Below are positions 9,658-53,840 of a DNA stretch of 64,000 nt, in pieces. The notes below the pieces were generated by a model that had not been told where the DNA came from, made no database searches, and worked only from the letters and a program-made list of their open reading frames with translations. The translations under genes were made by a program, and so were the position numbers. The number at the start of each line of letters is the position of its first letter. Within the stretch, counting starts at the first letter, position 1. Source of the stretch: Gadus chalcogrammus (lineage: Eukaryota > Chordata > Actinopteri > Gadiformes > Gadidae); contig NC_079413.1 of assembly GCF_026213295.1 (NCBI RefSeq), positions 20,112,378 to 20,176,377 of the forward strand, written 5' to 3'.

Positions 9658-9700
9658 ACTACTCCGTGAATCGGTGCCCGTCCGCGCCCGTTTCAACACT

Positions 9701-9916: not shown

Positions 9917-9933
9917 TAGATGTAGGCTAGATA

Positions 9934-22524: not shown

Positions 22525-22712
22525 TTTAAATTGGACAAGAAATGACCTGAAACACTTTTCTAAAGAGAAAAAGTTAGCCTATACCTCTGCAGTAGGCTAA
22601 CTAAATCCCCTCTAGACGTCCATTTTCTTTAAAATCTTGATTGTTTACTTGCCTCAGATATGACGGCAGGGCTGTGTCGGCGATGTCACTCAATTCCTTC
22701 CAGAAGTACCCC

Positions 22713-23011
22713 GCCGGGTACGGTGGCGCGTGTCTCTAATCCAAGTCACTGGGAGGCTGAAGTTGGCGGTTCGATTGAGCTGAGGAGCTCTGCACTGTAC
22801 CGGACTATGTTGAACGGGTGTCCATGCTAAGTTTGGTATCGATATGGTGGTTCTGGGGGAGCCTTGGAACACCAGGTCTTCTAAGGAGGGGTGTACGGGC
22901 CCAGGTCGGGAACGGAGCAGGTCATAGCCCCCGTGCCGCTCAGTAGTGGGTTTGCATCCGTGAATAGACGTTACAGTGCAGCCTCGGCAAAACAGCGGTA
23001 CCTAATCTTTT
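22713..23011 (+). ncRNA. rn7sl: 7SL (SRP) RNA, copy 1
   Basis: 7SL is the scaffold of the signal recognition particle, which pauses translation and targets ribosomes to the ER. The sequence aligns from end to end with vertebrate 7SL. It has the 5' Alu domain (GCCGGG, then GGGAGGCTGAGG), the S-domain blocks AAGTTTGGTATCGATATGG and CTAAGGAGGGGTG, and the SRP54-binding helix 8 (AGGTCGGGAACGGAGCAGGT). Helix 8 has a GGAA tetraloop. The 3' end is T4 at 23,008-23,011. It starts GCCGGGTACGG. One odd base is GGTCATAG for GGTCAAAG. Confidence 0.93.
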
Positions 23012-23204
23012 CTGTTCAAATTGAGGTTGACATTTTATTTCTTGTATGTGTTTACTATGTAGGCTATAGTTAAATCGGATAAGAAATGACCTGAAACACT
23101 TTTTTAAGGAGAAAAAGGTAGCCAAAACCTCTGCAGTAGGCTAACTAAATCCCCTCTAGATGTCCATTTTCTTTGAAATCTTGTTTGTTTACTTGCCTCA
23201 GATA

Positions 23205-23212
23205 TGACGGCA
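23205..23212 (+). promoter_or_regulatory. CRE/ATF-like element of 7SL copy 2
   Basis: TGACGGCA begins at -52 from the predicted start and differs by one base from TGACGTCA. Human 7SL carries an ATF/CRE site at about -50, needed with the internal boxes for Pol III transcription. Other units have TGACATCA at the same place, also one change from the full site. Confidence 0.6.
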
Positions 23213-23256
23213 GGGCTGCGTCGGCGATGTCACTCAATTCCTTCCAGTAGAATTCC

Positions 23257-23555
23257 GCTGGGCACGGTGGTGCGTGCCTCTAATCCAAGTCACTGGGAGG
23301 CTGAGGTTGGCGGTTCGATTGAGCTCAGGAGCTCTGCACTGTACCGGACTATGTTGAACGGGTGTCCATGCTAAGTTCGGTATCGTTATGGTGGTTCTGG
23401 GGGAGCCTTGGACCACCAGGTCGTCTAAGGAGGGGTGTACGGGCCCAGGTCGGAAACGGAGCAGGTCAAAGCCCCCGTGCTGCTCAGTAGTGGGTTTGCA
23501 TCCGTGAATAGAAGTTACATTGCAGCCTTGGCAAAACAGCGGTACCTAATCTTTT
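23257..23555 (+). ncRNA. rn7sl: 7SL (SRP) RNA, copy 2
   Basis: Helix 8 reads GGTCGGAAACGGAGCAGGTC, the same as I recall for human 7SL, with a GAAA tetraloop. The internal B box is GGTTCGATT at 23,312-23,320. The 5' end is GCTGGGCACGGTGGTGCG. T4 lies at 23,552-23,555. Confidence 0.95.
23552..23555 (+). terminator. Pol III T4 terminator of 7SL copy 2
   Basis: TTTT follows TACCTAATC at the expected 3' end of the RNA. A second run (ACATTTTATTT) about 25 nt further on is kept in nearly all units and could act as a backup terminator. Confidence 0.7.
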
Positions 23556-23800
23556 CTGTTCAAATTGAGGTTGACATTTTATTTCTTGTATGTGTTTACT
23601 CTGTAGGCTATAGTTAAAATGGACAAGAAATGACCTGAAACACTTTTCTAAAGAGAAAAAGTTAGCCTAAACCTCTGCAGTAGGCTAACTAAATCCCCTC
23701 TAGACGTCCATTTTCTTTAAAATCTTGATTGTTTACTTGCCTCAGATATGACGGCAGGGCTGTGTCGGCGATGTCACTCAATTCCTTCCAGAAGTACTCC

Positions 23801-24101
23801 GCTGGGCACGGTGGCACGTGCCTCTAATCCAAGTCACTGGGAGGATGAGGTTGGCGGTTCGATTGAGCTGAGGAGCTCTGCACTGTACCGGACTATGTTG
23901 AACGGGTGTCCATGCTAAGTTCGGTATCGATACGGTGGTTCTGGGGGAGCCTTAGACCACCAGGTCGCCTAAGGAGGGGTGTTTGCGGGCCCAGGTCGGG
24001 AACGGAGCACGTCGAAGCCCCCGTGCCGCTCAGTAGTGGGTTTGCATCCGTGAATAGATGTTACAGTGCAGCCTTGGCAAAACAGCGGTACTTAATCTTT
24101 T
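23801..24101 (+). ncRNA. rn7sl: 7SL (SRP) RNA, copy 3
   Basis: Full length. 5' GCTGGGCACGGTGGCACG, tetraloop GGAA, and the 3' side of helix 8 is GAGCACGTCG in place of GAGCAGGTCA. T4 at 24,098-24,101. Confidence 0.93.
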
Positions 24102-24346
24102 CTGTTCAAATTGAGGTTGACATTTTATTTCTTGTATGTGTTTGCTATGTAGGCTCTAGTTAATTTGGACAAGAAATGACCTGAAACACTTTTCTAAAGA
24201 GAAAAAGATAGCCTAAACCTCTGCAGTAGGCTAACTAAATCCCCTCTAGACGTCCATTTTCTTTAAAATCTTGATTGTTTACTTGCCTCAGATATGACGG
24301 CAGGGCTGTGTCGGCGATGTCACTCAAATCCTTCCAGTAGAACTCC

Positions 24347-24647
24347 GCCGGGTACGGTGGCGCGTGCCTCTAATCCAAGTCACTGGGAGGCAGAGGTTGG
24401 CGGTTCGATTGAGCTGAGGAGCTCTGCACTGTACCGGACTATGTTGAACGGGTGTCCATGCTAAGTTTGGTATCGATATGGTGGTTCTGGGGGAGACTTG
24501 GACCACCAGGTCGCCTAAGGAGGGGTGTTTGCGGGCCCAGGTCGGGAACGGAGCATGTCGAAGCCCCCGTGCCGCTCAGTAGTGGGTTTGCATCCGTGAA
24601 TGGATGTTACAGTGCAGCCTTGGCAAAACAGCGGTACTTAATCTTTT
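24347..24647 (+). ncRNA. rn7sl: 7SL (SRP) RNA, copy 4
   Basis: Full length. 5' GCCGGGTACGGTGGCGCG, tetraloop GGAA, helix 8 side GAGCATGTCG. T4 at 24,644-24,647. It is nearly identical to copy 5. Confidence 0.93.
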
Positions 24648-24892
24648 CTGTTCAAATTGATGTTGACATTTTATTTCTTGTATGTGTTTGCTATGTAGGC
24701 TCCAGTTAATTTGGATAAGAAATTACCTGAAACACTTTTCTAAAGAGAAAAAGATAGCCTAAACCTCTGCAGTAGGCTAACTAAATCCCCTCTAGACGTC
24801 CATTTTCTTTAAAATCTTGATTGTTTACTTGCCTCAGATATGACGGCAGGGCTGTGTCGGCGATGTCACTCAAATCCTTCCAGTAGAACTCC

Positions 24893-25193
24893 GCCGGGTA
24901 CGGTGGCGCGTGCCTCTAATCCAAGTCACTGGGAGGCAGAGGTTGGCGGTTCGATTGAGCTGAGTAGCTCTGCACTGTACCGGACTATGTTGAACGGGTG
25001 TCCATGCTAAGTTTGGTATCGATATGGTGGTTCTGGGGGAGACTTGGACCACCAGGTCGCCTAAGGAGGGGTGTTTGCGGGCCCAGGTCGGGAACGGAGC
25101 ATGTCGAAGCCCCCGTGCCGCTCAGTAGTGAGTTTGCATCCGTGAATGGATGTTACAGTGCAGCCTTGGCAAAACAGCGGTACTTAATCTTTT
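24893..25193 (+). ncRNA. rn7sl: 7SL (SRP) RNA, copy 5
   Basis: Near twin of copy 4 at a 546-bp period. It differs by single bases, such as GAGTAGCTC for GAGGAGCTC. Tetraloop GGAA; T4 at 25,190-25,193. Confidence 0.93.
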
Positions 25194-25438
25194 CTGTTCA
25201 AATTGATGTTGACATTTTATTTCTTGTATGTGTTTGCTATGTAGGCTCTAGTTAATTTGGATAAGAAATTACCTGAAACACTTTTCTAAAGAGAAAAAGA
25301 TAGCCTAAACCTCTGCAGTAGGCTAACTAAATCCCCTCTAGACGTCCATTTTCTTTAAAATCTTGATTGTTTACTTGCCTCAGATATGACGGCAGGGCTG
25401 TGTCGGCGATGTCACTCAAATCCTTCCAGTAGAACTCC

Positions 25439-25739
25439 GCCGGGTACGGTGGCGTGTGCCTCTAATCCAAGTCACTGGGAGGCTGAGGTTGGCGGTTCGA
25501 TTGAGCTGAGGAGCTCTGCACTGTACCGGACTATGTTGAACGGGTGTCCATGCTAAGTTCGGTATCGATATGGTGGTTCTGGGGGAGCCTTAGACCACCA
25601 GGTCGCCTAAGGAGGGGTGTTTGCGGGCCCAGGTCGGGAACGGAGCACGTCGAAGCCCCCGTGCCGCTCAGTAGTGGGTTTGCATCCGTGAATAGATGTT
25701 ACAGTGCAGCCTTGGCAAAACAGCGGTACTTAATCTTTT
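25439..25739 (+). ncRNA. rn7sl: 7SL (SRP) RNA, copy 6
   Basis: Full length. 5' GCCGGGTACGGTGGCGTGTG, tetraloop GGAA, helix 8 side GAGCACGTCG as in copy 3. T4 at 25,736-25,739. Confidence 0.93.
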
Positions 25740-25984
25740 CTGTTCAAATTGAGGTTGACATTTTATTTCTTGTATGTGTTTGCTATGTAGGCTCTAGTTA
25801 ATTTGGACAAGAAATGACCTGAAACACTTTTCTAATGAGAAAAAGTTAGCCAAAACCTCAGCAGTAGGCTAACTAAATCCTCTCTAGATGTCCATTTTCG
25901 TTGAAATCTTGTTTGTTTACTTGCCTCAGATATGACGGCAGGGCTGTGTCGGCGATGTCACTCAATTCCTTCCAGAAGTACTCC

Positions 25985-26283
25985 GCCGGGCACGGTGGCG
26001 TGTGCCTCTAATCCAAGTCACTGGGAGGCTGAGGTTGGCGGTTCGATTGAGCTCAGGAGCTCTGCACTGTACCGGACTATGTTGAACTGGTGTCCATGCT
26101 AAGTTCGGTATCGATATGGTGGTTCTGGGGGAGCCTTGGACCACCAGGTCGTCTAAGGAGGGGTGTACGGGCCCAGGTCGGAAACGGAGCAGGTCAAAGC
26201 CCCCGTGCCGCTCAGTAGTGGGTTTGCATCCGTGAATAGATGTTACAGTGCAGCCTTGGCAAAACAGCGGTACCTAATCTTTT
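25985..26283 (+). ncRNA. rn7sl: 7SL (SRP) RNA, copy 7
   Basis: Full length. 5' GCCGGGCACGGTGGCGTG, tetraloop GAAA. AACTGGTGTCC replaces AACGGGTGTCC in the central helix. T4 at 26,280-26,283. Confidence 0.93.
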
Positions 26284-26528
26284 CTGTTCAAATTGAGGTT
26301 GACATTTTATTTCTTGCATGTGTTTACTATGTAGGCTGTAGTTAAGTCGGATAAGAAATTACCTGAAACACTTTTCTAAAGAGAAAAAGATAGCCTAAAC
26401 CTCTGCAGTAGGCTAACTAAATCCCCTCTAGACGTCCATTTTCTTTAAAATCTTGATTGTTTACTTGCCTCAGATATGACGGCAGGGCTGTGTCGGCGAT
26501 GTCACTCAAATCCTTCCAGTAGAACTCC

Positions 26529-26829
26529 GCCGGGTACGGTGGCGCGTGCCTCTAATCCAAGTCACTGGGAGGCGGTGGTTGGCGGTTCGATTGAGCTGAG
26601 GAGCTCTGCACTGTACCGGACTATGTTGAACGGGTGTCCATGCTAAGTTTGGTATCGATATGGTGGTTCTGGGGGAGACTTGGACCACCAGGTCGCCTAA
26701 GGAGGGGTGTTTGCGGGCCCAGGTCGGGAACGGAGCATGTCGAAGCCCCCGTGCCGCTCAGTAGTGGGTTTGCATCCGTGAATAGATGTTACAGTGCAGC
26801 CTTGGCAAAACAGCGGTACTTAGTCTTTT
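26529..26829 (+). ncRNA. rn7sl: 7SL (SRP) RNA, copy 8
   Basis: Full length. The Alu-domain block reads GGGAGGCGGTGG in place of GGGAGGCTGAGG, at the loop that contacts its partner loop and SRP9/14, so function may be affected. Tetraloop GGAA; T4 at 26,826-26,829. Confidence 0.91.
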
Positions 26830-27074
26830 CTGTTCAAATTGAGGTTGACATTTTATTTCTTGTATGTGTTTGCTATGTAGGCTCTAGTTAATTTGGACAA
26901 GAAATGACCTGAAACACTTTTCTAAAGAGAAAAAGTTAGCCAAAACCTCAGTAGTAGGCTAACTAAATCCCCTCTAGATGTCCATTTTCGTTGAAATCTT
27001 GTTTGTTTACTTGCCTCAGATATGACGGCAGGGCTGTGTCGGCGATGTCACTCAATTCCTTCCAGAAGTACTCC

Positions 27075-27373
27075 GCCGGGCACGGTGGCGCGTGCCTCTA
27101 ATCCAAGTCACTGGGAGGCTGAGGTTGGCGGTTCGATTGAGCTCAGGAGCTCTGCACTGTACCGGACTATGTTGAACGGGTGTCCATGCTAAGTTCGGTA
27201 TCGATATGGTGGTTCTGGGGGAGCCTTGGACCACCAGGTCGTCTAAGGAGGGGTGTACGGGCCCAGGTCGGTAACGGAGCAGGTCAAAGCCCCCGTGCTG
27301 CTCAGTAGTGGGTTTGCATCCGTGAATAGAAGTTACAGTGCAGCCTTGGCAAAACAGCGGTACCTAATCTTTT
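27075..27373 (+). ncRNA. rn7sl: 7SL (SRP) RNA, copy 9
   Basis: Full length. 5' GCCGGGCACGGTGGCGCG. The tetraloop is GTAA (CGGTAACG), still a GNRA loop. T4 at 27,370-27,373. Confidence 0.93.
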
Positions 27374-27618
27374 CTGTTCAAATTGAGGTTGACATTTTAT
27401 TTCTTGTATGTGTTTACTCTGTAGGCTGTAGTTAAGTCGGATAAGAAATTACCCGAAACACTTTTCTAAAGAGAAAAAGATAGCCTAAACCTCTGCAGTA
27501 GGCTAACTAAATCCCCTCTAGACGTCCATTTTCTTTAAAATCTTGATTGTTTACTTGCCTCAGATATGACGGCAGGGCTGTGTCGGCGATGTCACTCAAA
27601 TCCTTCCAGTAGAGCTCC

Positions 27619-27919
27619 GCCGGGTACGGTGGCGCGTGCCTCTAATCCAAGTCACTGGGAGGCTGAGGTTGGCGGTTCGATTGAGCAGAGGAGCTCTGCA
27701 CTGTACCGGACTATGTTGAACGGGTGTCCATGCTAAGTTTGGTATCGATATGGTGGTTCTGGGGGAGCCTTGGACCACCAGGTCGCCTAAGGAGGGGTGT
27801 TTGCGGGCCCAGGTCGGGAACGGAGCAGGTCAAAGCCCCCGTGCCGCTCAGTAGTGGGTTTGCATCCGTGAATAGATGTTACAGTGCAGCCTTGGCAAAA
27901 CAGCGGTACCTAATCATTT
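27619..27919 (+). ncRNA. rn7sl: 7SL (SRP) RNA, copy 10, no T4
   Basis: The RNA body is intact with tetraloop GGAA, but the terminator reads TCATTTC, only three T. Read-through to the next T run, about 25 nt downstream, would be expected. Confidence 0.9.
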
Positions 27920-28164
27920 CTGTTCAAATTGAGGTTGACATTTTATTTCTTGTATGTGTTTGCTATGTAGGCTCTAGTTAATTTGGACAAGAAATGACCT
28001 GAAACACTTTTCTAAAGAGAAAAAGTTAGCCAAAACCTCAGCAGTAGGCTAAGTAAATCCCCTATAGATGTCCATTTTCGTTGAAATCTTGTTTGTTTAC
28101 TTGCCTCAGATATGACGGCAGGGCTGTGTCGGCGATGTCACTCATTTCCTTCCAGAAGTGCTCC

Positions 28165-28463
28165 GCCGGGCACGGTGGCGCGTGGCTCTAATCCAAGTCA
28201 CTGGGAGGCTGAGGTTGGCGGTTCGATTGAGCTCAGGAGCTCTGCACTGTACCGGACTATGTTGAACGGGTGTCCATGCTAAGTTCGGTATCGATATGGT
28301 GGTTCTGGGGGAGCCTTGGACCACCAGGTCGTCTAAGGAGGGGTGTACGGGCCCAGGTCGGAAATGGAGCAGGTCAAAGCCCCCGTGCCGCTCAGTAGTG
28401 GGTTTGCATCCGCGAATAGACGTTACAGTGCAGCCTCGGCAAAACAGCGGTACCTAATCTTTT
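28165..28463 (+). ncRNA. rn7sl: 7SL (SRP) RNA, copy 11
   Basis: Full length. CGTGGCTCT replaces CGTGCCTCT, breaking a pair of the 5' Alu-domain stem. The GAAA tetraloop is closed by G-T (CGGAAATGG). T4 at 28,460-28,463. It is followed by the shorter spacer type. Confidence 0.91.
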
Positions 28464-28700
28464 CTGTTGAAGTTTACATTTTATTTCTTGTACGTTTACT
28501 ATGTAGGCTCCAGTTAAATTGGATAAGAAATGACCTGAAACACTTTTTTAAAGAGAAAGAGGTAGCCAAAACCTCTGCAGTAGGCTAAATAAATCCTCTC
28601 TAGACGTCCATTTTCTTTAAAATCTTGATTGTTTACTTGCCTCAGATATGACATCAGGGCTGTGTCGGCGATGTCAATCAATTCCTTCCAGAAGAACTCC

Positions 28701-28999
28701 GCCGGGCATGTTGGTGCGTGCCTCTAATCCAAGTCACTGGGAGGCTGAGGTTGGAGGTTCGATTGAGCTGAGGAGCTATGCACTGTATCGGACTATGTTG
28801 AACGGGTGTCCATGCTAAGTACGGTATCGATATGGTGGTTCTGGGGGAGCCTTGGAACACCAGGTCGTCTAAGGAGGGGTGTACGGGCCCAGGTCGGGAA
28901 CGGAGCAGGTCAAAGCCCCCGTGCCGCTCAGTAGTTGGTTTGTATCCGTGAATAGATGTTACAGTGCAGCCTTGGCAAAACAGCAGTACCTAATCTTTT
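28701..28999 (+). ncRNA. rn7sl: 7SL (SRP) RNA, copy 12
   Basis: Full length. 5' GCCGGGCATGTTGGTGCG, tetraloop GGAA, CAGCAGTACC near the end. T4 at 28,996-28,999. First full copy of the block repeated at a 3,237-bp offset (twin: copy 18). Confidence 0.92.
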
Positions 29000-29244
29000 C
29001 TGTTCAAATTGAGGTTGACATTTTATTTCTTGCATGTGTTTACTATGTAGGCTGTAGTTAAGTCGGATAAGAAATTACCTGAGACACTTTTCTAAAGAGA
29101 AAAAGATAGCCTAAACCTCTGCAGTAGGCTAACTAAATCCCCTCTAGACGTCCATTTTCTTTAAAATCTTGATTGTTTACTTGCCTCAGATATGACGGCA
29201 GGGCTGTGTCGGCGATGTCACTCAAATCCTTCCAGTAGAACTCC

Positions 29245-29545
29245 GCCGGGTACGGTGGCGCGTGCCTCAAATACAAGTCACTGGGAGGCTGAGGTTGGCG
29301 GTTCGATTGAGCTGAGGAGCTCTGCACTGTACCGGACTATTTTGAACGGGTGTCAATGCTAAGTTCGGTATCGATATGGTGGTTCTGGGGGAGCCTTGGA
29401 CCACCAGGTCGCCTAAGGAGGAGTGTTTGCGGGCCTAGGTCGGGAACGGAGCAGGTCAAAGCCCCCGTGCCGCTCAGTAGTGGGTTTGCATCCTTGAATA
29501 GTTGTTACAGTGCAGCCTTGGCAAAACAGCGGTACTTATTCTTTT
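29245..29545 (+). ncRNA. rn7sl: 7SL (SRP) RNA, copy 13
   Basis: Full length. CCTCAAATACAAG replaces CCTCTAATCCAAG in the conserved Alu-domain loop, and TATTTTGAACGG replaces TATGTTGAACGG. Tetraloop GGAA; T4 at 29,542-29,545. Twin of copy 19. Confidence 0.91.
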
Positions 29546-29790
29546 CTGTTCAAATTGAGGTTGACATTTTATTTCTTGTATGTGTTTGCTATATAGGCTC
29601 TAGTTAAGTCGGATAAGAAATGACCTGAAACACTTTTCTAAAGAGAAAAAGATAGCCTAAACCTCTGCAGTAGGCTAACTAAATCCCCTCTAGACGTCCA
29701 TTTTCTTTAAAATCTTGATTGTTTACTTGCCTCAGATATGACGGCAGGGCTGTGTCGGCGATGTCACTCAAATCCTTCCAATAGAACTCC

Positions 29791-30089
29791 GCCGGGTACG
29801 GTGGCGCGTGCCTCTAATCCAAGTCACTGGGAGGCTGAGGTTGGCGGTTCGATTGAGCTCAGGAGCTCTGCACTGTACCTGACTATGTTGAACGGGTGTC
29901 AATGCTAAGTTCGGTATCGATGTGGTGGATCTGGGGGAGCCTTGGACCACCAGGTCGTCTAAGGAGGGGTGTACGGGCCCAGGTCGGAAACGGAGCAGGT
30001 CAAAGCCCCCGTGCCGCTCAGCAGTAGGTTTGCATCCGCGAATAGACGTTACAGTGCAGCCTCGGCAAAACAGCGGTACCTAATCTTTT
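29791..30089 (+). ncRNA. rn7sl: 7SL (SRP) RNA, copy 14
   Basis: Full length. 5' GCCGGGTACGG, tetraloop GAAA, GTGTCAATGC for GTGTCCATGC. T4 at 30,086-30,089. Twin of copy 20. Confidence 0.93.
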
Positions 30090-30324
30090 CTGTTGAAGTT
30101 CACATTTTATTTCTTGTACGTTTACTATGTAGGCTCTAGTTAAATTGGATAAGAAATGACCTGAAACACTTTTTTAAAGAGAAAGGTAGCCAAAACCTCT
30201 GCAGTAGGCTAAATAAATCCTCTCTAGACGTCCATTTTCTTTAAAATCTTGATTGTTTACTTGCCTCAGATATGACATCAGGGCTGTGTCGGCGATGTCA
30301 CTCAATTCCTTCCAGAAGAACTCC

Positions 30325-30623
30325 GCCGGGCACGGTGGCGCGTGCCTCTAATCTAAGTCACTGGGAGGCTGAGGTTGGAGGTTCGATTGAGCTGAGGAGC
30401 TATGCACTGTATCGGACTATGTTGAACGGGTGTCCATGCTAAGTACGGTATTGATATGGTGGTTCTGGGGGAGCCTTGGACCACCAGGTCGTCTAAGGAG
30501 GGGTGTACGGGCCCAGGTCGGAAACGGAGCAGGTCAAAGCCCCCGTGCCGCTCAGTAGTGGGTTTGCATCTGTGAATAGATGTTACAGTGCAGCCTTGGC
30601 AAAACAGCGGTACATAATCTTTT
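30325..30623 (+). ncRNA. rn7sl: 7SL (SRP) RNA, copy 15
   Basis: Full length. 5' GCCGGGCACGG, tetraloop GAAA, TCTAATCTAAGTC in the Alu domain. T4 at 30,620-30,623. Twin of copy 21. Confidence 0.93.
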
Positions 30624-30868
30624 CTGTTCAAATTGAGGTTGACATTTTATTTCTTGTATGTGTTTGCTATGTAGGCTCTAGTTAAGTCGGATAAGAAATG
30701 ACCTGAAACACTTTTCTAAAGAGAAAAAGATAGCCTAAACCTCTGCAGTAGGCTAACTAAATCCCCTCTAGACGTCCATTTTCTTTAAAATCTTGATTGT
30801 TTACTTGCCTCAGATATGACGGCAGGGCTGTGTCGGCGATGTCACTCAAATCCTTCCAGTAGAACTCC

Positions 30869-31167
30869 GCCGGGTACGGTGGCGCGTGCCTCTAATCCAA
30901 GTCACTGGGAGGCTGAGGTTGGCGGTTCGATTGAGCTCAGGAGCTCTGCACTGTACCTGACTATGTTGAACGGGTGTCAATGCTAAGTTCGGTATCGATG
31001 TGGTGGATCTGGGGGAGCCATGGACCACCAGGTCGTCTAAGGAGGGGTGTACGGGCCCAGGTCGGAAACGGAGCAGGTCAAAGCCCCCGTGCCGCTCAGT
31101 AGTGGGTTTGCATCCGCGAATAGACGTTACAGTGCAGCCTCGGCAAAACAGCGGTACCTAAACTTTT
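30869..31167 (+). ncRNA. rn7sl: 7SL (SRP) RNA, copy 16
   Basis: Full length. 5' GCCGGGTACGG, tetraloop GAAA, 3' end TAAACTTTTC. T4 at 31,164-31,167. Confidence 0.93.
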
Positions 31168-31401
31168 CTGTTGAAGTTCACATTTTATTTCTTGTACGTT
31201 TACTATGTAGGCTCTAGTTAAATTGGATAAGAAATGACCTGCAACACTTTTTAAAGAGAAAGGTAGCCAAAACCTCTGCAGTAGGCTAAATAAATCCTCT
31301 CTAGACGTCCATTTTCTTTAAAATCTTGATTGTTTACTTGCCTCAGATATGACATCAGGGCTGTGTCGGCGATGTCACTCAATTCCTTCCAGAAGAACTC
31401 C

Positions 31402-31700
31402 GCCGGGCACGGTGGCGCGTGCCTCTAATCCAAGTCACTGGGAGGCTGAGGTTGGAGGTTCGATTGAGCTGAGGAGCTATGCACTGTATCGGACTATGTT
31501 GAACGGGTGTCCATGCTAAGTACGGTATCGATATGGTGGTTCTGGGGGAGCCTTGGACCACCAGGTCGTCTAAGGAGGGGTGTACGGGCCCAGGTCGGAA
31601 ACGGAGCAGGTCAAAGCCCCCGTGCCGCTCAGTAGTGGGTTTGCATCCGCGAATAGACGTTACAGTGCAGCCTCGGCAAAACAGCGGTACCTAATCTTTT
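31402..31700 (+). ncRNA. rn7sl: 7SL (SRP) RNA, copy 17
   Basis: Full length. 5' GCCGGGCACGG, GGTTGGAGG and ACTGTATCGG subfamily, tetraloop GAAA. The upstream element is TGACATCA. T4 at 31,697-31,700. Confidence 0.94.
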
Positions 31701-37893: not shown

Positions 37894-38191
37894 GCCGGGC
37901 ACGGTGGCGCGTGCCTCTAATCCAAGTCACTGGGAGGCTGAGGTTGGCGGTTCGATTGAGCTCAGGAGCTCTGCACTGTACCGGACTATGTTGAACGGGT
38001 GTCCATGCTAAGTTCGGTATCGATATGGTGGTTCTGGGGGAGCCTTGGACCACCAGGTCGTTTAAGGAGGGGTGTACGGGCCCAGGTCGTAAACGGAGCA
38101 GGTCAAAGCCCCCGTGCCGCTCAGTAGTGGGTTTGCATCCGTGAATAGTTGTTACAGTGCAGCCTTGGCAAAACAGCGGTACCTAATCTTT
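37894..38191 (+). ncRNA. rn7sl: 7SL (SRP) RNA, copy 29, altered loop, T3 only
   Basis: The tetraloop is TAAA (CGTAAACG), outside GNRA. The terminator has lost one T (TCTTTC). Otherwise full length. Confidence 0.87.
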
Positions 38192-38436
38192 CTGTTCAAA
38201 TTGAGGTTGACATTTTATTTCTTGCATGTGTTTACTATGTAGGCTGTAGTTAAGTCGGATAAGAAATGACCTGAAACACTTTTCTAAAGAGAAAAAGATA
38301 GCCTAAACCTCTGCAGTAGGCTAACTAAATCCCCTCTAGACGTCCATTATCTTTAAAATCTTGATTGTTTACTTGCCTCAGATATGACGGCAGGGCTGTG
38401 TCGGCGATGTCACTCAAATCCTTCCAGTAGAAATCC

Positions 38437-38737
38437 GCAGGGTACGGTGGCGTGTGCCTCTAATCCAAGTCACTGGGAGGCTGAGGTTGGCGGTTCGATT
38501 GAGCTGAGGAGCTCTGCACTGTACCGGACTATGTTGAACGGGTGTCCATGCTAAGTTCGGTATCGATATGGTGGTTCTGGTGGAGCCTTAGACCACCAGG
38601 TCGCCTAAGGAGGGGTGTTTGCGGGCCCAGGTCGAGAACGGAGCAGGTCAAAGCCCCCGTGCCGCTCAGTAGTGGGGTTGCATCCGTGAATAGATGTTAC
38701 AGTGCAGCCTTGGTAAAACAGCGGTACCTAATCATTT
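38437..38737 (+). ncRNA. rn7sl: 7SL (SRP) RNA, copy 30, altered loop, no T4
   Basis: 5' GCAGGGTACGG. The tetraloop is AGAA (CGAGAACG), outside GNRA. The terminator is TCATTTC. Confidence 0.86.
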
Positions 38738-38982
38738 CTGTTCAAATTGAGGTTGACATTTTATTTCTTGTATGTGTTTGCTATGTAGGCTCTAGTTAAT
38801 TTGGACAAGAAATGACCTGAAACACTTTTCTAAAGAGAAAAAGTTAGCCAAAACCTCAGCAGTAGGCTAACTAAATCCCCTCTAGATGTCCATTTTCGTT
38901 GAAATCTTGTTTGTTTACTTGCCTCAGATATGACGGCAGGGCTGTGTCGGCGATGTCACTCAATTCCTTCCAGAAGTACTCC

Positions 38983-39281
38983 GCCGGGCACGGTGGCGCG
39001 TGCCTCTAATCCAAGTCACTGGGAGGCTGAGGTTGGCGGTTCGATTGAGCTCAGGAGCTCTGCACTGTACCGGACTATGTTGAACGGGTGTCCATGCTAA
39101 GTTCGGTATCGATATGGTGGTTCTGGGGGAGCCTTGGACCACCAGGTCGTCTAAGGAGGGGTGTACGGGCCCAGGTTGGAAACGGAGCAGGTCAAAGCCC
39201 CCGTGCCGCTCAGTAGTGGGTTTGCATCCGCGAATAGACGTTACAGTGCAGCCTCGGCAAAACAGCGGTACCTAATCTTTT
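38983..39281 (+). ncRNA. rn7sl: 7SL (SRP) RNA, copy 31
   Basis: Full length. 5' GCCGGGCACGG, tetraloop GAAA with one stem pair changed to a wobble (GGTTGGAAACGG). T4 at 39,278-39,281. Confidence 0.92.
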
Positions 39282-39516
39282 CTGTTGAAGTTCACATTTT
39301 ACTTCTTGTACGTTTACTATGTAGGCTCTAGTTAAATTGGATAAGAAATGACCTGAAACACTTTTTTAAAGAGAAAGGTAGCCAAAACCTCTGCAGTAGG
39401 CTAAATAAATCCTCTCTAGACGTCCATTTTCTTTAAAATCTTGATTGTTTACTTGCCTCAGATATGACATCAGGGCTGTGTCGGCGATGTCACTCAATTT
39501 CTTCCAGAAGAACTCC

Positions 39517-39815
39517 GCCGGGCACGGTGGCGCGTGCCTCTAATCCAAGTCACTGGGAGGCTGAGGTTGGAGGTTCGATTGAGCTGAGGAGCTATGCACT
39601 GTATCGGACTATGTTGAACGGGTGTCCATGCTAAGTACGGTATCGATATGGTGGTTCTGGGGGAGCCTTGGAACACCAGGTCGTCTAAGGAGGGGTGTAC
39701 GGGCCCAGGTCGGGAACGGAGCAGGTCAAAGCCCCCGTGCCGCTCAGTAGTTAGTTTGTATCCGTGAATAGTTGTTACAGTGCAGCCTTGGCAAAACAGC
39801 GGTACCTAATCTTTT
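39517..39815 (+). ncRNA. rn7sl: 7SL (SRP) RNA, copy 32
   Basis: Twin of copy 23 at +4,878 bp. Tetraloop GGAA; T4 at 39,812-39,815. Confidence 0.93.
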
Positions 39816-40060
39816 CTGTTCAAATTGAGGTTGACATTTTATTTCTTGTATGTGTTTACTCTGTAGGCTATAGTTAAGTCGGATAAGAAATGACCTGAAA
39901 CACTTTTTTAAAGAGAAAAAGGTAGCCAAAACCTCTGCAGTAGGCTAACTAAATCCCCTCTAGATGTCCATTTTCTTTGAAATCTTGTTTGTTTACTTGC
40001 CTCAGATATGACGGCAGGGCTGTGTCGGCGATGTCACTCAATTCCTTCCAGTAGTACTCC

Positions 40061-40359
40061 GCAGGGCACGGTTGCGCGTGCCTCTAATCCAAGTCACTGG
40101 GAGGCTGAGGTTGGCGGTTCGATTGAGCTGAGGAGCTCTGCACTGTACCGGACTATGTTGAACGGCTGTCCATGCTAAGTTCGGTATTGATATGGTGGTT
40201 CTGGGGGAGCCTTGGACCACCAGGTCGTCTAAGGAGGGGTGTACGGGCCCAGGTCGGAAACGGAGCAGGTCAAAGCCCCCGTGCCGCTCAGTAGTGGGTT
40301 TGCATCCGTGAATAGATGTTACAGTGCAGCCTTGGCAAAACAGCGGTACCTAATCTTTT
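40061..40359 (+). ncRNA. rn7sl: 7SL (SRP) RNA, copy 33
   Basis: Twin of copy 24 at +4,878 bp with the same GCAGGGCACGGTTGCGCG start. Tetraloop GAAA; T4 is intact at 40,356-40,359. Confidence 0.92.
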
Positions 40360-40604
40360 CTGTTCAAATTGAGGTTGACATTTTATTTCTTGCATGTGTT
40401 TACTATGTAGGCTGTAGTTAAGTCGGATAAGAAATGACCTGAAACACTTTTCTAAAGAGAAAAAGATAGCCTAAACCTCTGCAGTAGGCTAACTAAATCC
40501 CCTCTAGACGTCCATTTTCTTTAAAATCTTGATTGTTTACTTGCCTCAGATATGACGGCAGGGCTGTGTCGGCGATGTCACTCAAATCCTTCCAGTAGAA
40601 CTCC

Positions 40605-40905
40605 GCCGGGTACGGTGGCGTGTGCCTCTAATCCAAGTCACTGGGAGGCTGAGGTTGGCGGTTCGATTGAGCTGAGGAGCTCTGCACTGTACCGGACTAT
40701 GTTGAACGGGTGTCCATGCTAAGTTCGGTATCGATATTGTGGTTCTGGTGGGGCCTTAGACCACCAGGTCGCCTAAGGAGGGGTGTTTGCGGGCCCAGGT
40801 CGAGAAAGGAGCAGGTCAAAGCCCCCGTGCCGCTCAGTAGTGGGGTTGCATCCGTGAATAGATGTTACAGTGCAGCCTTGGCAAAACAGCGGCACCTAAT
40901 CTTTT
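40605..40905 (+). ncRNA. rn7sl: 7SL (SRP) RNA, copy 34, altered helix 8 loop
   Basis: The tetraloop is AGAA and its closing stem is changed (CGAGAAAGG), so SRP54 binding is doubtful. T4 at 40,902-40,905. Confidence 0.88.
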
Positions 40906-41150
40906 CTGTTCAAATTGAGGTTGACATTTTATTTCTTGCATGTGTTTACTATGTAGGCTGTAGTTAAGTCGAATAAGAAATTACCCGAAACACTTTTCTA
41001 AAGAGAAAAAGATAGCCAAAACCTCAGCAGTAGGCTAACTAAATCCCCTCTAGATGTCCATTTTCGTTGAAATCTTGTTTGTTTACTTGCCTCAGATATG
41101 ACGGCAGGGCTGTGTCGGCGATGTCACTCAAATCCTTCCAGTAGAACTCC

Positions 41151-41451
41151 GCCGGGTACGGTGGCGTGTGCCTCTAATCCAAGTCACTGGGAGGCTGAGG
41201 TTGGTGGTTCGATTGAGCTGAGGAGCTCTGCACTGTACCGGACTATGTTGAACGGGTGTCCATGCTAAGTTCGGTATCGATATGGTGGTTCTGGGGGAGC
41301 CTTAGACCACCAGGTCGTCTAAGGAGGGGTGTTTGCGGGCCCAGGTCGGGAACGGAGCACGTCGTAGCCCCCGTGCCGCTCAGTATTGGGTTTGCATCCG
41401 TGAATAGATGTTACAGTGCAGCCTTGGCAAAACAGCGGTACCTAATCTTTT
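41151..41451 (+). ncRNA. rn7sl: 7SL (SRP) RNA, copy 35
   Basis: Full length. 5' GCCGGGTACGGTGGCGTG, tetraloop GGAA, helix 8 side GAGCACGTCGTAG. T4 at 41,448-41,451. Confidence 0.92.
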
Positions 41452-41696
41452 CTGTTCAAATTGAGGTTGACATTTTATTTCTTGTATGTGTTTGCTATGT
41501 AGGCTCTAGATAATTTGGACAAGAAATGACCTGAAACACTTTTCTAAAGAGAAAAAGTTAGCCAAAACCTCAGCAGTAGGCTAACTAAATCCCCTCTAGA
41601 TGTCCATTTTCGTTGAAATCATGTTTGTTTACTTGCCTCAGATATGACGGCAGGGCTGTGTCGGCGATGTCACTCAATTCCTTCCAGAAGAACTCC

Positions 41697-41995
41697 GCCG
41701 GGCACGGTGGCGCGTGCCTCTAATCCAAGTCACTGGGAGGCTGAGGTTGGTGGTTCGATTGAGCTCAGGAGCTCTGCACTGTACCGGACTATGTTGAACG
41801 GGTGTCCATGCTAAGTTAGGTATCGATATGGTGGTTCTGGGGGAGCCTTGGACCACCAGGTCGTTTAAGGAGGGGTGTACGGGCCCAGGTCGTAAACAGA
41901 GCATGTCAAAGCCCCCGTGCCGCTCAGTAGTGGGTTTGCATCCGTGAATAGTTGTTACAGTGCAGCCTTGGCAAAACAGCGGTACCTAATCTATT
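41697..41995 (+). ncRNA. rn7sl: 7SL (SRP) RNA, copy 36, altered loop, no T4
   Basis: Twin of copy 26 at +5,424 bp with the same TAAA tetraloop, CAGAGCATGTC stem and TCTATTC terminator. The damaged gene was therefore copied as part of a block. Confidence 0.86.
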
Positions 41996-42239
41996 CTGTT
42001 CAAATTGAGGTTGACATTTTATTTCTTGCATGTGTTTACTATGTAGGCTGTAGTTAAGTCGGATAAGAAATTACCTGAAACACTTTTCTTAAGAGAAAAA
42101 TATAGCCTAAACCTCTGCAGTAGGCTAACTAAATCCCCTCTAGACGTCCATTTTCTTTAAATCTTGATTGTTTACTTGCCTCAGATATGACGGCAGGGCT
42201 GTGTCGGCGATGTCACTCAAATCCTTCCAGTAGAACTCC

Positions 42240-42538
42240 GCTGGGTACGGCGGCGCGTGCCTCTAATCCAAGTCACTGGGAGGCTGAGGTTGGCGGTTCG
42301 ATTGAGCTCAGGAGCTCTGCACTGTACCGGATTATGTTGAACGGGTGTCCATGCTAAGTTCGGTATCGATATGGTGGTTCTGGGGGAGCCTTGGACCACC
42401 CGGTCGCCTAAGGAGGGGTGTACGGGCCCAGGTCGGAAACGGAGCAGGTCAAAGCCCCCGTGCCGCTCAGTAGTGGGTTTGCATCCGTGAATAGTTGTTA
42501 CAGTGCAGCCTTGGCAAAACAGCGGTACCTAATCTTTT
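42240..42538 (+). ncRNA. rn7sl: 7SL (SRP) RNA, copy 37
   Basis: Twin of copy 27 at +5,423 bp. 5' GCTGGGTACGGCGGCG, tetraloop GAAA; T4 at 42,535-42,538. Confidence 0.92.
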
Positions 42539-42783
42539 CTGTTCAAATTGAGGTTGACATTTTATTTCTTGCATGTGTTTACTATGTAGGCTGTAGTTAA
42601 GTCGGATAAGAAATTACCTGAAACACTTTTCTTAAGAGAAAAATATAGCCTAAACCTCTGCAGTAGGCTAACTAAATCCCCTCTAGACGTCCATTATCTT
42701 TAAAATCTTGATTGTTTACTTGCCTCAGATATGACGGCAGGGCTGTGTCGGCGATGTCACTCAAATCCTTCCAGTAGAACTCC

Positions 42784-43084
42784 GCAGGGTACGGTGGCGT
42801 GTGCCTCTAATCCAAGTCACTGGGAGGCTGAGGTTGGCGGTTCGATTGAGCTGAGGAGCTCTGCACTGTACCGGACTATGTTGAACGGGTGTCCATGCTA
42901 AGTTTGGTATCGATATGGTGGTTCTGGGGGAGCCTTAGACCACCAGGTCGCCTAAGGAGGGGTGTTTGCGGGCCCAGGTCGAGAACGGAGCAGGTCAAAG
43001 CCCCCGTGCCGCTCAGTAGTGGGGTTGCATCCGTGAATAGATGTTACAGTGCAGCCTTGGCAAAACAGCGGTACCTAATCATTT
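42784..43084 (+). ncRNA. rn7sl: 7SL (SRP) RNA, copy 38, altered loop, no T4
   Basis: 5' GCAGGGTACGGTGGCGTG, tetraloop AGAA, terminator TCATTTC. Same lineage as copies 30 and 40. Confidence 0.86.
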
Positions 43085-43329
43085 CTGTTCAAATTGAGGT
43101 TGACATTTTATTTCTTGTATGTGTTTGCTATGTAGGCTCTAGTTAATTTGGACAAGAAATGACCTGAAACACTTTTCTAAAGAGAAAAAGTTAGCCAAAA
43201 CCTCAGCAGTAGGCTAACTAAATCCCCTCTAGATGTCCATTTTCGTTGAAATCTTGTTTGTTTACTTGCCTCAGATATGACGGCAGGGCTGTGTCGGCGA
43301 TGTCACTCAATTCCTTCCAGAAGTACTCC

Positions 43330-43627
43330 GCCGGGCACGGTGGCGCGTGCCTCTAATCCAAGTCACTGGGAGGCTGAGGTTGGCGGTTCGATTGAGCTCA
43401 GGAGCTCTGCACTGTACCGGACTATGTTGAACGGGTGTCCATGCTAAGTTCGGTATCGATATGGTGGTTCTGGGGGAGCCTTGGACCACCAGGTCGTTAA
43501 GGAGGGGTGTACGGGCCCAGGTCGTAAACGGAGCAGGTCAAAGCCCCCGTGCCGCTCAGTAGTGGGTTTGCATCCGTGAATAGTTGTTACAGTGCAGCCT
43601 TGGCAAAACAGCGGTACCTAATCTTTT
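43330..43627 (+). ncRNA. rn7sl: 7SL (SRP) RNA, copy 39, altered loop
   Basis: The tetraloop is TAAA as in copy 29, and one base is missing near CAGGTCGTTAAGG. T4 at 43,624-43,627. Confidence 0.88.
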
Positions 43628-43872
43628 CTGTTCAAATTGAGGTTGACATTTTATTTCTTGCATGTGTTTACTATGTAGGCTGTAGTTAAGTCGGATAAGA
43701 AATGACCTGAAACACTTTTCTAAAGAGAAAAAGATATCCTAAACCTCTGCAGTAGGCTAACTAAATCCCCTCTAGACGTCCATTATCTTTAAAATCTTGA
43801 TTGTTTACTTGCCTCAGATATGACGGCAGGGCTGTGTCGGCGATGTCACTCAAATCCTTCCAGTAGAACTCC

Positions 43873-44172
43873 GCAGGGTACGGTGGCGTGTGCCTCTAAT
43901 CCAAGTCACTGGGAGGCTGAGGTTGGCGGTTCGATTGAGCTGAGGAGCTCTGCACTGTACCGGACTATGTTGAACGGGTGTCCATGCTAAGTTCGGTATC
44001 GATATGGTGGTTCTGGTGGAGCCTTAGACCACCAGGTCGCATAAGGAGGGGTGTTTGCGGGCCCAGGTCGAGAACGGAGCAGTTCAAAGCCCCGTGCCGC
44101 TCAGTAGTGGGGTTGCATCCGTGAATAGATGTTACAGTGCAGCCTTGGCAAAACAGCGGTACCTAATCATTT
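43873..44172 (+). ncRNA. rn7sl: 7SL (SRP) RNA, copy 40, altered loop, no T4
   Basis: Tetraloop AGAA, helix 8 side GAGCAGTTCAAAG, one C missing in GCCCCGTGCC, terminator TCATTTC. It is the last full copy before the hAT insertion and probably degenerate. Confidence 0.85.
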
Positions 44173-44224
44173 CTGTTCAAATTGAGGTTGACATTTTATT
44201 TCTTGTATGTGTTTGCTATGTAGG

Positions 44225-44232
44225 CTCTAGTT
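44225..44232. repeat. Left target-site duplication of the hAT element
   Basis: CTCTAGTT is repeated exactly at 47,011-47,018. It is a native part of the 7SL spacer (GGCTCTAGTTAATTTGG). An 8-bp duplication is the mark of hAT transposition. Confidence 0.9.
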
Positions 44233-47010
44233 CAATGGTTCTCAATCTGTGGTACGCGTACGCCATCTAGTGGTACGTGGAGTATGCGCGAAAAAATTGA
44301 AGCAATCGGTAATTGTTACATAAACGTGAATGTCCAGCCACACAAACACTAAACACATAAGTCACACGGTTTCTAAATGGAATTAAAATTAAACTAGGCT
44401 TTATTTCTCCTTATTTCTTTCTGTGTGTATGTTGCCGTTGTTTTTCGTGCGCACCCAAAAGAGACGTTACTACGAGCCTCTTCTTTGGAGCATTAGCTAG
44501 TGATGTTAAACCGGCATAGTTATAACTGCTTTGATGATGAGTGGGGGAAGCAAAAATACTGCAAACTCGTTGCAATCTTGGCTCCAAGGAAATATAAGGA
44601 GTAGAAGTGTGTTACAAAATGAAGTTGCCAACAGTCAAGGTGATCCTAGCGCTAGTGCTAATAGTGCTTGCAGTGATTTGCGCAGTGAGGTTTCAGCACC
44701 GGATAGCAAACGACGCAAAACTGTAAGGAAATACCACTCGAATTACATTAATCTTTGATTTACTTGGACTGGGGCTGAGGATGAACCAAGACCACAGTGC
44801 GTTGTGTGCGGAGATGTTCTCAGCAATGAATGCATGAAGCCATCACATCTCACTCGGCATCTTTCCACCAAGCATCCATCACTGAAAGAAAAGCCAGTTG
44901 ACTTTTTCATCAGAAAACGCGATGAGCTAAAGCAGTCAAAATCAACAATAAGGCACAGCATTACACCCGTTGCCAAAGCTCAGGAAGCTTCCTATCGTGG
45001 CAGCCTTCGTATAGCAAAAGCTGGTAAGCCGCACACGATTGCTGAAGAGCTATGTTTACCATTCGCAAAAGAGATGACGAGCATTATGTGTGGGGAGAAC
45101 GTTGCGAAACAGTTAAGCTTGGTGCCGCTCTCTAATGACACAGTGTCACGGAGGATACAAGCGATGTCAGAAAATGTTAAACAAACACTGGTGGAACGCA
45201 TTAAAGACAGTCCCTACTTTTCTATTCAACTTGACGAGACCACCGATGTTGCAGATTTGGCTAATTTGCTTGTGTTCGTCAGATACAAATATGAAAAAGC
45301 AACTCATGAGGATTTTCTGTTCTGTCAGTCTCTTCAGACGAGAACTACAGCTGAGCACATCTTTCAGCTCGTGAATGCCTTTTTCCAAGAGACTGGGCTT
45401 GATTGGAAAAAGTGCGTCGGAGTCTGCACAGACGGTGCAAGGGCCATGACAGGTCGCCACAGCGGAGTGGTGGCCCGAATCCGGGAGGTGGCACCTGATG
45501 TGCAATGGACTCACTGCAGCATTCACCGCGAAGCTCTTGCAGTGAAGAGAATGCCCGCAGAACTAAAGGCTGTTTTAGACACAGCTGTCAAAGCAGTCAA
45601 TTTCATTAAATCCAGACCGATGCATGCTCGCCTTTTCCATGTCCTCTGCGATGAGATGGGCAGCGAGCATGTCCAACTTCTGTTGCATACAGAAGTGAGA
45701 TGGCTCTCAAGAGGAAGGTGCTGTCCAGGCTTTTTGAGTTGCACAGGGAGGTCCAAGTGTTCTTGCAGGACAAAAGCTTCCCCTTATCAGGTGTGTTTGA
45801 TGACACTTTGTGGCTCAGTCAGCTCGCCTACTTGTCTGACATTTTTTCCCGAATGAATGAGCTGAATTTGGGACTGCAGGGACTCTCTACCAGTGCCTTT
45901 GATGTCCAGGACAAAATCAGTGCGATGCTGAAAAAGCTGGAATTATTCCAGATAAAAATACGGACTGATGATGTGTCTGCGTTCCCTAATCTGGAGACGT
46001 TTCTCTCTGACAATGACCTCAGGCTCGCTGATCAAGTCAGGGACAACATTGCTGAGCACCTGAACTCTCCTACAACAGTTTGCTGAATATTTCCCTGCGA
46101 TTGTGCAGGGGAATACATGGATGCGCAATCCGTTTGTTGTTAAGGCTTATGACGTCCTGGAGGAGAACCTATCGGCTCTTGAGCAGGAGCTTTTAATTGA
46201 ACTGTCCTGTGACGAGACATTGAAGTCAACTTTCAGAGGCCAGACATTGCTGGACTTCTGGATGCAGCGACGAGGCGAATATCCGGCGCTTTCGGACAAG
46301 GCCGTGCGCTTTCTAATTCCATTCGCCACCACTTATTTATGCGAGAAAGGATTCTCTTCTCTCGCCTGCATTAAGAATAAATATAGAAGCAGGTTGGATG
46401 CGGAACCAAGTCTGAGGCTAAAGCTAACCGCAATCGACCCAGACATCGCTGCACTCTGTTCACAGAGCCACGCACACCCCTCTCACTAAGCATGATAGGC
46501 CCAGAGTCGCCATTATCCATTTCCATTCTATTTTTTTTTCTTCTTCTTATAAGTAGCCTACATCCTTTAAATGCATTACTCGAAAATATCACAGTAGGGC
46601 CTACTTTTCATAATTTTCAATGTTCAATTTATCTCTGTAAATGGTTTATACAAGGCAAGTTGCTCATGTTGTTTGACTCCAGTATTTTAATATTCGTGTT
46701 TTGATGCAGTACAATGTACACTTGTTAAACGTCACTAGACTGACTGGTATTTATATCCACATTTGCTGGGTAGGCCTATATTTTGATGCAGATCAGTTGT
46801 GTAGTATTGTCACTTTGTAAGTTTTTTAAATACAATACATGAGTTTACATTAGTTGCTTCAGTCATATGAACAATAAATCATTAATATTAATGCCTTCTG
46901 TGTAATCTCTATGTAGTTACTGGCCTACGCTTTATTTTAATTCTGGTGGTACTTGGAGAGCCAAATCATTTCTAAGGTGGTACTCATGGTAAAAAGTTTG
47001 AGAACCACTG
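44233..47010 (+). mobile_element. hAT DNA transposon (ZBED5/SCAND3-like), 2,778 bp
   Basis: The ends CAATGGTTCTCAA and TTGAGAACCACTG are inverted repeats with one mismatch, flanked by the 8-bp duplication CTCTAGTT. It carries one decayed transposase gene in the + orientation. It lies in a 7SL spacer, and spacer sequence resumes exactly after the right duplication. Confidence 0.93.
44531..46489 (+). pseudogene. hAT transposase (ZBED5/SCAND3-like), inactivated
   Basis: The reading frame starts at 44,531. It carries a BED zinc finger (CVVCGDVLSNECMKPSHLTR, then HLSTKH), RNase H-like blocks (SPYFSIQLDETTDVADLANL, then GVCTDGARAMTG, THCSIHREAL and EVRWLSRG) and a C-terminal hAT dimerisation domain (FLIPFATTYLCEKGFSSL). 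Three lesions break it: a TGA stop at 44,756-44,758 ahead of the BED finger, a 1-nt deletion near 45,712 after EVRWLSRG, and a frameshift near 46,070. The stop is TAA at 46,487-46,489. Domesticated vertebrate relatives exist, but this copy is dead. Confidence 0.9.
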
Positions 47011-47203
47011 CTCTAGTTAATTTGGACAAGAAATGACCTGAAACACTTTTCTAAAGAGAAAAAGTTAGCCAAAACCTCAGCAGTAGGCTAACTAAATCCC
47101 CTCTAGACGTCCATTTTCGTTGAAATCTTGTTTGTTTACTTGCCTCAGATATGACGGCAGGGCTGTGTCGGCGATGTCACTCAATTCCTTCCAGAAGTAC
47201 TCT

Positions 47204-47231
47204 GCCGGGCACGTTGGTGCGTGCCTCTAAT
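47204..47231 (+). ncRNA. rn7sl: 7SL (SRP) RNA, copy 41, cut by the gap
   Basis: Only the first 28 nt are present (GCCGGGCACGTTGGTGCG, then TGCCTCTAAT) before the run of N. The upstream spacer is complete, including TGACGGCA at the expected place. Confidence 0.85.

Positions 47232-53015: not shown

Positions 53016-53840
<825 letters not shown>

What the first reader, a model, noticed from the sequence alone, without database searches (positions are those of the whole stretch)
22525..47231. Tandem array of at least 40 full-length 7SL (SRP) RNA genes
The 533-546-bp repeat looks like an ordinary satellite, and its open frames are meaningless. Each unit nevertheless contains a complete 7SL RNA gene with Alu domain, S domain, SRP54-binding helix 8, internal B box and usually a T4 terminator. 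Vertebrates are usually thought to use only a few functional 7SL genes plus dispersed pseudogenes, so an rDNA-like array of this size is unusual and may not have been described in this lineage.
Basis: partly seen in the sequence, partly recalled or inferred. Interest (0 to 1): 0.92.

Follow-up and report, generated by a model that had tools for sequence, protein, structure and literature searches.

The report
Fish array of second-type SRP RNA
A genome that is likely a cod-like fish's holds at least 83 tandem copies of a second version of the RNA core of the protein-export particle SRP, and every full-length copy examined carries the one-letter change that in human SRP RNA weakens binding of the proteins needed to pause translation; this version is predicted to be an egg-stage form, which remains untested.

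Summary
In detail: Rfam Metazoa_SRP gives 40 full-length plus-strand hits (193-246 bits, cut-off 70) every 533-546 bp from 22713 to 44172. A 41st copy is cut by a 100-N gap at 47232, after a hAT transposon (44233-47010).

Seven canonical genes (266-275 bits) lie on contig C21. The window array and two more arrays (24 copies on C2, 19 on C21) form a second class. All 83 carry C at position 24 (UGU to UCU in the Alu-domain U-turn) and UC for CU at 34-35; all 7 canonical copies keep G24. G24C is reported to cut SRP9/14 binding 50-fold (passage in PMC12439944).

The types differ at 45 of 299 sites, yet each keeps 101 of 120 model pairs (86.3 expected at random), so the array type diverged under structural selection. 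Within the two C2 arrays recent changes drift neutrally.

Most likely this is a high-copy egg-type (maternal) SRP RNA, by analogy with maternal rRNA types; no expression data were available. A decaying 7SL satellite is the main rival. U3 snoRNA arrays lie beside both C2 arrays.

The parts
22529..44232 (+). Tandem array of 40 complete array-type 7SL (SRP) RNA units, 533-546 bp each. Gene starts: 22713, 23257, 23801, 24347, 24893, 25439, 25985, 26529, 27075, 27619, 28165, 28701, 29245, 29791, 30325, 30869, 31402, 31938, 32482, 33028, 33562, 34106, 34639, 35183, 35727, 36273, 36817, 37350, 37894, 38437, 38983, 39517, 40061, 40605, 41151, 41697, 42240, 42784, 43330, 43873
   Evidence: 40 RF00017 hits, model 1-299; spacing; left edge by loss of identity to other units
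31402..31700 (+). Best-scoring window copy (246.1 bits), as an example of the RNA gene; C at its position 24 is window 31425
   Evidence: alignment
31342..31401 (+). 5' flank of that copy, with a degenerate CRE-like stretch; this copy reads ATGACATCA where most window units read ATGACGGCA, and canonical genes have TGACGTCA. Predicted promoter part
   Evidence: use as promoter inferred
44233..47010 (+). hAT DNA transposon inserted in the last unit, target duplication CTCTAGTT at 44225-44232 and 47011-47018
   Evidence: Pfam Dimer_Tnp_hAT in frame 46064-46486
47011..47231 (+). Array resumes: 5' flank and first 28 nt of a 41st copy (gene start 47204), also with C at position 24
47232..47331 (.). 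100-N assembly gap; sequence to its right is not array, so the true right end and copy number are unknown
8944..20486 (+). Neighbouring cluster of nine full-length U3 snoRNA genes; same pairing of U3 and SRP arrays at C2 20.425-20.484 Mb

Best explanation
The window holds 40 full-length tandem gene copies of a second type of SRP (7SL) RNA, distinct in sequence from the seven canonical 7SL genes found elsewhere in the genome, and it likely serves as a high-copy egg-type (maternal) SRP RNA whose SRP9/14 binding would be weakened. Shown: each unit carries its own 5' flank, an RNA gene of about 300 nt that fits the SRP model from end to end, and in most copies a Pol III T-run. Shown: C at position 24 and UC at 34-35 in 83 of 83 array-type copies of three arrays; structure-preserving divergence from the canonical type. 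Inferred: each copy is transcribed by Pol III from a promoter unlike the canonical one (degenerate CRE, tRNA-like GGTTCGA at +56). Inferred: the RNA assembles the S domain (SRP19, SRP54, SRP68/72) normally, but the altered Alu domain binds SRP9/14 weakly and pauses translation less. Inferred: many copies supply the large SRP stock of the growing oocyte, while the canonical genes serve somatic cells, as with maternal and somatic rRNA types. The C21 array looks like the maintained one; the window array is a larger, partly decaying relative.
For: Full-length model hits. Two classes: C24 in 83 of 83 array-type copies, G24 in 7 of 7 canonical. Array consensus differs from canonical copy som_1 at 45 of 299 sites, both form 101 of 120 model pairs, random placement gives 86.3, and in 53 of 60 gap-free copies none of 200 randomisations reaches the observed pairs. 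31 both-side-changed cells against 12.5 shuffled, 0 of 500 (32 of 90 copies aligned). C21 array: 18 of 19 copies pass the combined intactness test, 19 of 19 have T4. GGAG loop kept in 81 of 83. Flanks differ: TGACGTCA in 6 of 7 canonical, 0 of 84 array flanks. Genomic pattern matches zebrafish maternal 5S (2330 genes) against somatic (12 genes) (passage in PMC5513064). G24C lowers SRP9/14 binding 50-fold (passage in PMC12439944).
Against: No expression data of any kind. Within the C2 arrays substitutions fall as at random with respect to pairing (97.95 pairs observed against 97.96 expected in the window array; 97.63 against 97.40 in the second), paired sites are no less variable than unpaired ones (0.050 against 0.040), and gene and spacer diversity are close. 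Only 17 of 40 and 9 of 24 C2 copies pass the intactness test, and the SRP54 loop is intact in 65 of 83. CpG transitions are raised in the C2 arrays. Two of five covariation measures do not exceed shuffles. The minimum-energy fold of the best window copy does not reproduce the model's 5' domain and is only z -1.96. No second species was available to show that the array type is kept.
Confidence: 0.48

Rival explanations
1. A 7SL-derived satellite: an old, once functional second 7SL gene was amplified with its flanks by unequal exchange, and most or all copies are now silent and drifting.
For: Neutral drift relative to pairing in both C2 arrays; gene diversity near spacer diversity; raised CpG transitions in the C2 arrays; T4 missing in 9 of 40 and 8 of 24 C2 copies; near-identical blocks in the array.
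Against: Structure was preserved while the type diverged. The C21 array is homogeneous and nearly all copies are intact (18 of 19). The 5' flank is shared by three arrays on two contigs.
Confidence: 0.3
2. A dosage array: ordinary SRP RNA genes in high copy for secretory demand in all tissues, with C24 tolerated because this fish's SRP9/14 compensates.
For: S-domain motifs mostly kept; many copies.
Against: The canonical genes persist with G24 in 7 of 7; different flanks suggest different regulation. SRP9/14 of this genome was not examined.
Confidence: 0.11
3. A 7SL-derived RNA with a new job outside SRP, for example as a decoy or scaffold.
For: Uniform change at the SRP9/14 contact site.
Against: The S domain, GGAG loop and SRP54 loop are largely kept, which a non-SRP role would not need.
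Confidence: 0.08
4. Assembly artefact: repeated assembly of one or a few units.
For: The array ends at a 100-N gap; u14 and u20 are identical, u12/u18 and u13/u19 99.8% alike.
Against: Mean unit identity is only 93.9%; 37 distinct gene sequences in 40 copies; three separate arrays on two contigs.
Confidence: 0.03

Closest known systems
Canonical 7SL (SRP) RNA genes of the same genome (C21 4.03-4.32 Mb; Rfam RF00017)
   Same: Full-length SRP model fit, same pairing, GGAG loop, T-run terminator
   Different: Seven copies found, not in a short-period array; G24 and CU34-35; CRE TGACGTCA upstream in 6 of 7; array type differs at 45 of 299 sites
Maternal (oocyte) and somatic 5S and 45S rRNA types of zebrafish and Xenopus (PMC5513064, passages read)
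   Same: A diverged RNA type in many tandem copies beside few copies of another type
   Different: SRP RNA rather than rRNA; stage-specific expression shown there, not tested here. A preprint on further RNAs of this system (doi 10.1101/869651) was seen only as a title in a reference list; that it treats SRP and U3 RNA is recalled
7SL-derived SINEs (Alu, B1, hagfish SINE1-1_EBu; PMC7245038, passages read)
   Same: 7SL-derived, high copy, internal Pol III promoter boxes
   Different: SINE1 families lack the S domain and keep SRP9/14 binding; here the S domain is present, the copies are head to tail with a shared 5' flank, and the SRP9/14 site is the altered part
Tandem 5S rDNA and other RNA gene arrays
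   Same: Head-to-tail units with spacer, block duplications, partial homogenisation
   Different: 7SL genes; no such fish array was seen in the ten paper searches

Membership tests
Metazoan SRP (7SL) RNA, RF00017 | End-to-end covariance-model match above the gathering score | tested here: met
   40 of 40 window copies, 193-246 bits against 70
Metazoan SRP (7SL) RNA, RF00017 | SRP19 GGAG loop of helix 6 | tested here: met
   81 of 83 array-type copies
Metazoan SRP (7SL) RNA, RF00017 | SRP54-binding loop of helix 8 (CCCAGG and AGCAGG) | tested here: met
   In the consensus and in 65 of 83 copies; 29 of 40 in the window
Metazoan SRP (7SL) RNA, RF00017 | Conserved UGU U-turn with G24 for SRP9/14 | tested here: not met
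   C24 in 83 of 83 copies. Hence 'variant SRP RNA', not a plain member in function
Metazoan SRP (7SL) RNA, RF00017 | Assembly with SRP proteins in the cell | not testable with these tools
   Needs immunoprecipitation and RNA sequencing
7SL-derived SINE | S domain absent, copies dispersed | tested here: not met
   Full model match and head-to-tail order
Maternal-type RNA gene array | Diverged high-copy tandem type beside a low-copy type | tested here: met
   83 array-type against 7 canonical copies found; both counts are lower bounds
Maternal-type RNA gene array | Expression in oocytes, replacement in the embryo | not testable with these tools
   No RNA data

The most novel reading that the evidence does not exclude
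This fish keeps a separate egg-type SRP whose RNA naturally and uniformly carries the G24C change, so that SRP in the oocyte and early embryo targets proteins with little or no SRP9/14-dependent pausing of translation: a natural arrest-deficient SRP, made from arrays that sit beside U3 arrays.
Probability: 0.22. Interest if true: 0.92.

Novelty: new variant of a known kind. Interest (0 to 1): 0.72.

Why it matters
SRP RNA is usually treated as one RNA per animal. A second type in the same genome, conserved in structure yet changed at the very base that human work ties to SRP9/14 binding, would be a natural test of what elongation arrest is for. If egg-specific, it would extend the maternal and somatic dual RNA system from the ribosome to the protein-targeting machinery. 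It also shows how an RNA gene array can pass for an ordinary satellite.

Tried and rejected
Alu-like SINE: rejected, end-to-end hits. Assembly duplicate of one copy: rejected for the array as a whole. Strong present selection on every copy: not supported in the C2 arrays. Minimum-energy folding as evidence: not used as support; z -1.96 for a window copy and -1.33 for a canonical copy. The bacterial promoter and terminator scan does not apply to Pol III genes and is not used. The idea that GGTTCGA at +56 is the working B box was weakened by reading that the human 7SL B box is placed at 76-86. No enrichment of fixed changes in the Alu loops is claimed: 12 unpaired differences in all, 4 of them at positions 24, 32, 34 and 35. 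Relatives in viral and prokaryote contig collections: 0 matches. Genome-wide copy counts and a genome-wide U3 search did not complete, so the U3 genes could not be sorted into types. A look for a solved structure with a right-flank frame gave nothing useful. Lineage: the hAT frame search (1592 proteins, 120 listed) has unnamed best hits; among the named fish entries listed the highest identity is Gadus morhua, 90% over 65% of the query. This is a lead, not an identification; no tool named the species.
Full report
Observation. Rfam release 15 finds 40 end-to-end Metazoa_SRP hits on the + strand of the window, 22713 to 44172, 193-246 bits against a cut-off of 70. Spacing is 533-546 bp. A short Alu-domain pattern finds 40 sites, with a mean of 0.00 in 100 shuffles. 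The array begins inside a unit near 22529. After copy 40 a hAT element lies at 44233-47010 with an 8-bp target duplication. The array then resumes, and copy 41 is cut by a 100-N gap at 47232-47331. So 40 complete copies is a lower bound and the right end is unknown.

Where the window lies. It is contig C2, 20112378-20176377, of a 629.9-Mb genome in 168 contigs. The only hint to lineage is the inserted hAT frame: the best hits are unnamed, and among the named fish entries of the 120 listed the highest identity is Gadus morhua, 90% over 65% of the query. That the host is a cod-like fish is inference.

Two classes of SRP RNA gene. The one genome search that was answered scored 26 of 9592 candidates, so all genome counts are lower bounds. 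I fetched 20 stretches of 10 kb around the hits; all were compared by BLAST and 14 of the 20 by cmscan. Result: window array 40 complete copies; a second C2 array (20.4389-20.4517 Mb) 24; a C21 array (3.7160-3.7260 Mb, minus strand) 19; seven canonical copies on C21 (two on + at 4.028 and 4.048 Mb, five on - at 4.309-4.321 Mb). In one search, 22 of the 24 and 18 of the 19 are seen whole by cmscan (201-248 bits); the other three straddle stretch borders and were read by laying neighbouring stretches together. Canonical copies score 266-275 bits. That the canonical ones are the somatic ones is inference.

Diagnostic changes. Position 24, in the conserved UGU of the Alu-domain U-turn, is C in 83 of 83 array-type copies and G in 7 of 7 canonical copies; positions 34-35 are UC in 83 of 83 and CU in 7 of 7. 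The Rfam consensus has a well conserved G at 24. A passage of PMC12439944 says that G24C reduces SRP9/14 binding 50-fold and that pairing between the L2 and L1.2 loops is needed too; the papers it cites (Chang 1997, Huck 2004) are not held. Passages of PMC8137916 name the UGU U-turn as the conserved SRP9/14 site. That position 24 does not vary among array copies is no proof of selection by itself: 134 of 299 columns are invariant.

Selection on structure between the types. The array consensus (60 gap-free copies of 83) and canonical copy som_1 differ at 45 of 299 positions, yet each forms 101 of 120 model pairs. The 60 copies themselves form 98.2 on average. Placing each copy's substitutions at random leaves 86.3 pairs (sd about 3.0); in 53 of 60 copies none of 200 randomisations reaches the observed number. 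On an alignment of 32 of the 90 copies (5 canonical, 27 array) 31 cells have changes on both sides against 12.5 in shuffles, and the covariation score is 0.077 against 0.064, 0 of 500 shuffles reaching either; but 'pairs with a change on both sides' (8 against 6.4, 87 of 500) and 'further pair types' (52 against 53.0) do not exceed shuffles. The tool warns that relatedness alone can exceed such shuffles. Compensated pairs include 8-19, 10-17, 51-293 and 86-261. Against the Rfam consensus the canonical type keeps the base at 30 of the 45 sites, the array type at 8, neither at 7: the array type is the derived one.

Drift within the arrays. Substitutions relative to each array's own consensus leave 97.95 pairs against 97.96 expected at random in the window array, 97.63 against 97.40 in the second C2 array, and 99.74 against 99.13 in the C21 array, where copies have 3 changes on average. 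Over all 83 copies paired sites vary slightly more than unpaired ones (0.050 against 0.040). Gene diversity in the window array is 0.050, spacer 0.058 (39 units). A combined intactness test passes 17 of 40, 9 of 24 and 18 of 19 copies; T4 is present in 31 of 40, 16 of 24 and 19 of 19. CpG transitions are raised in the two C2 arrays. On a midpoint-rooted FastTree of 82 units (one C21 unit left out) the C21 array is one clade (support 0.77), while the two C2 arrays are intermixed. I read this as an old, once selected second SRP RNA type, kept in shape in the C21 array, with the C2 arrays large, redundant and partly decaying.

Promoter. Flanks of canonical genes have TGACGTCA near -50 in 6 of 7; array flanks have it in 0 of 84 and TGACGGCA at the same place in 67 of 84. 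Array copies have GGTTCGA at +56 in 73 of 83, which resembles a tRNA B box (recalled). The human 7SL B box is given at 76-86 (passage in PMC7245038); there the array type reads AGCTCTGCACT and the canonical type AGTTCTGAGCT. Which one works is open.

U3 neighbours. Nine full-length U3 genes lie upstream in the window, and U3 copies lie on both sides of the second C2 array. Sequences at the two places are alike, with a few truncated copies. Whether they are a second U3 type could not be tested.

Reading. A diverged RNA type in large tandem arrays beside few canonical genes is the genomic pattern of maternal and somatic rRNA: in zebrafish 2330 maternal 5S genes against 12 somatic (passage in PMC5513064). 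A preprint on this dual system (doi 10.1101/869651) is cited in PMC11417395; I saw only its title, and that it covers SRP and U3 RNA is recalled. I commit to an egg-type SRP RNA with predicted weak SRP9/14 binding, at about even odds; a decaying 7SL satellite is the chief rival. Ten paper searches showed no tandem 7SL array in fish; several listings were capped, and subscription papers and preprints were not searched.

Noticed in passing
window 8944-20486; L021-L025, L027: Nine full-length U3 snoRNA genes in a loose tandem cluster beside the SRP array; the same pairing recurs at C2 20.425-20.484 Mb. Possibly a second RNA gene type; the genome-wide search did not complete.
   Followed up: partly
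window 44233-47010: hAT transposon inserted in the array with an 8-bp target duplication; its transposase frames are broken into at least three pieces.
   Followed up: yes
window 13596-13985 and 10946-11572: A DDE_Tnp_4 (Harbinger-like) transposase fragment and, by eye, a reverse-transcriptase-like frame inside the U3 cluster (the second has no Pfam hit).
   Followed up: no
window 22529-44232, units u12-u15 / u18-u21 and u23-u30 / u32-u39: Block duplications of about six and nine units inside the array: recent unequal exchange or unresolved assembly.
   Followed up: partly
window 47332-48060: Sequence right of the gap has no U3 or SRP similarity, so the gap may join unrelated sequence.
   Followed up: no
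window 3691-3871, 53402-53701, 59893-59989, 63030-63271, 63883-64000: Dense simple repeats (AG, TG, GT, TATG) and a 35-bp tandem repeat that runs off the right end.
   Followed up: no
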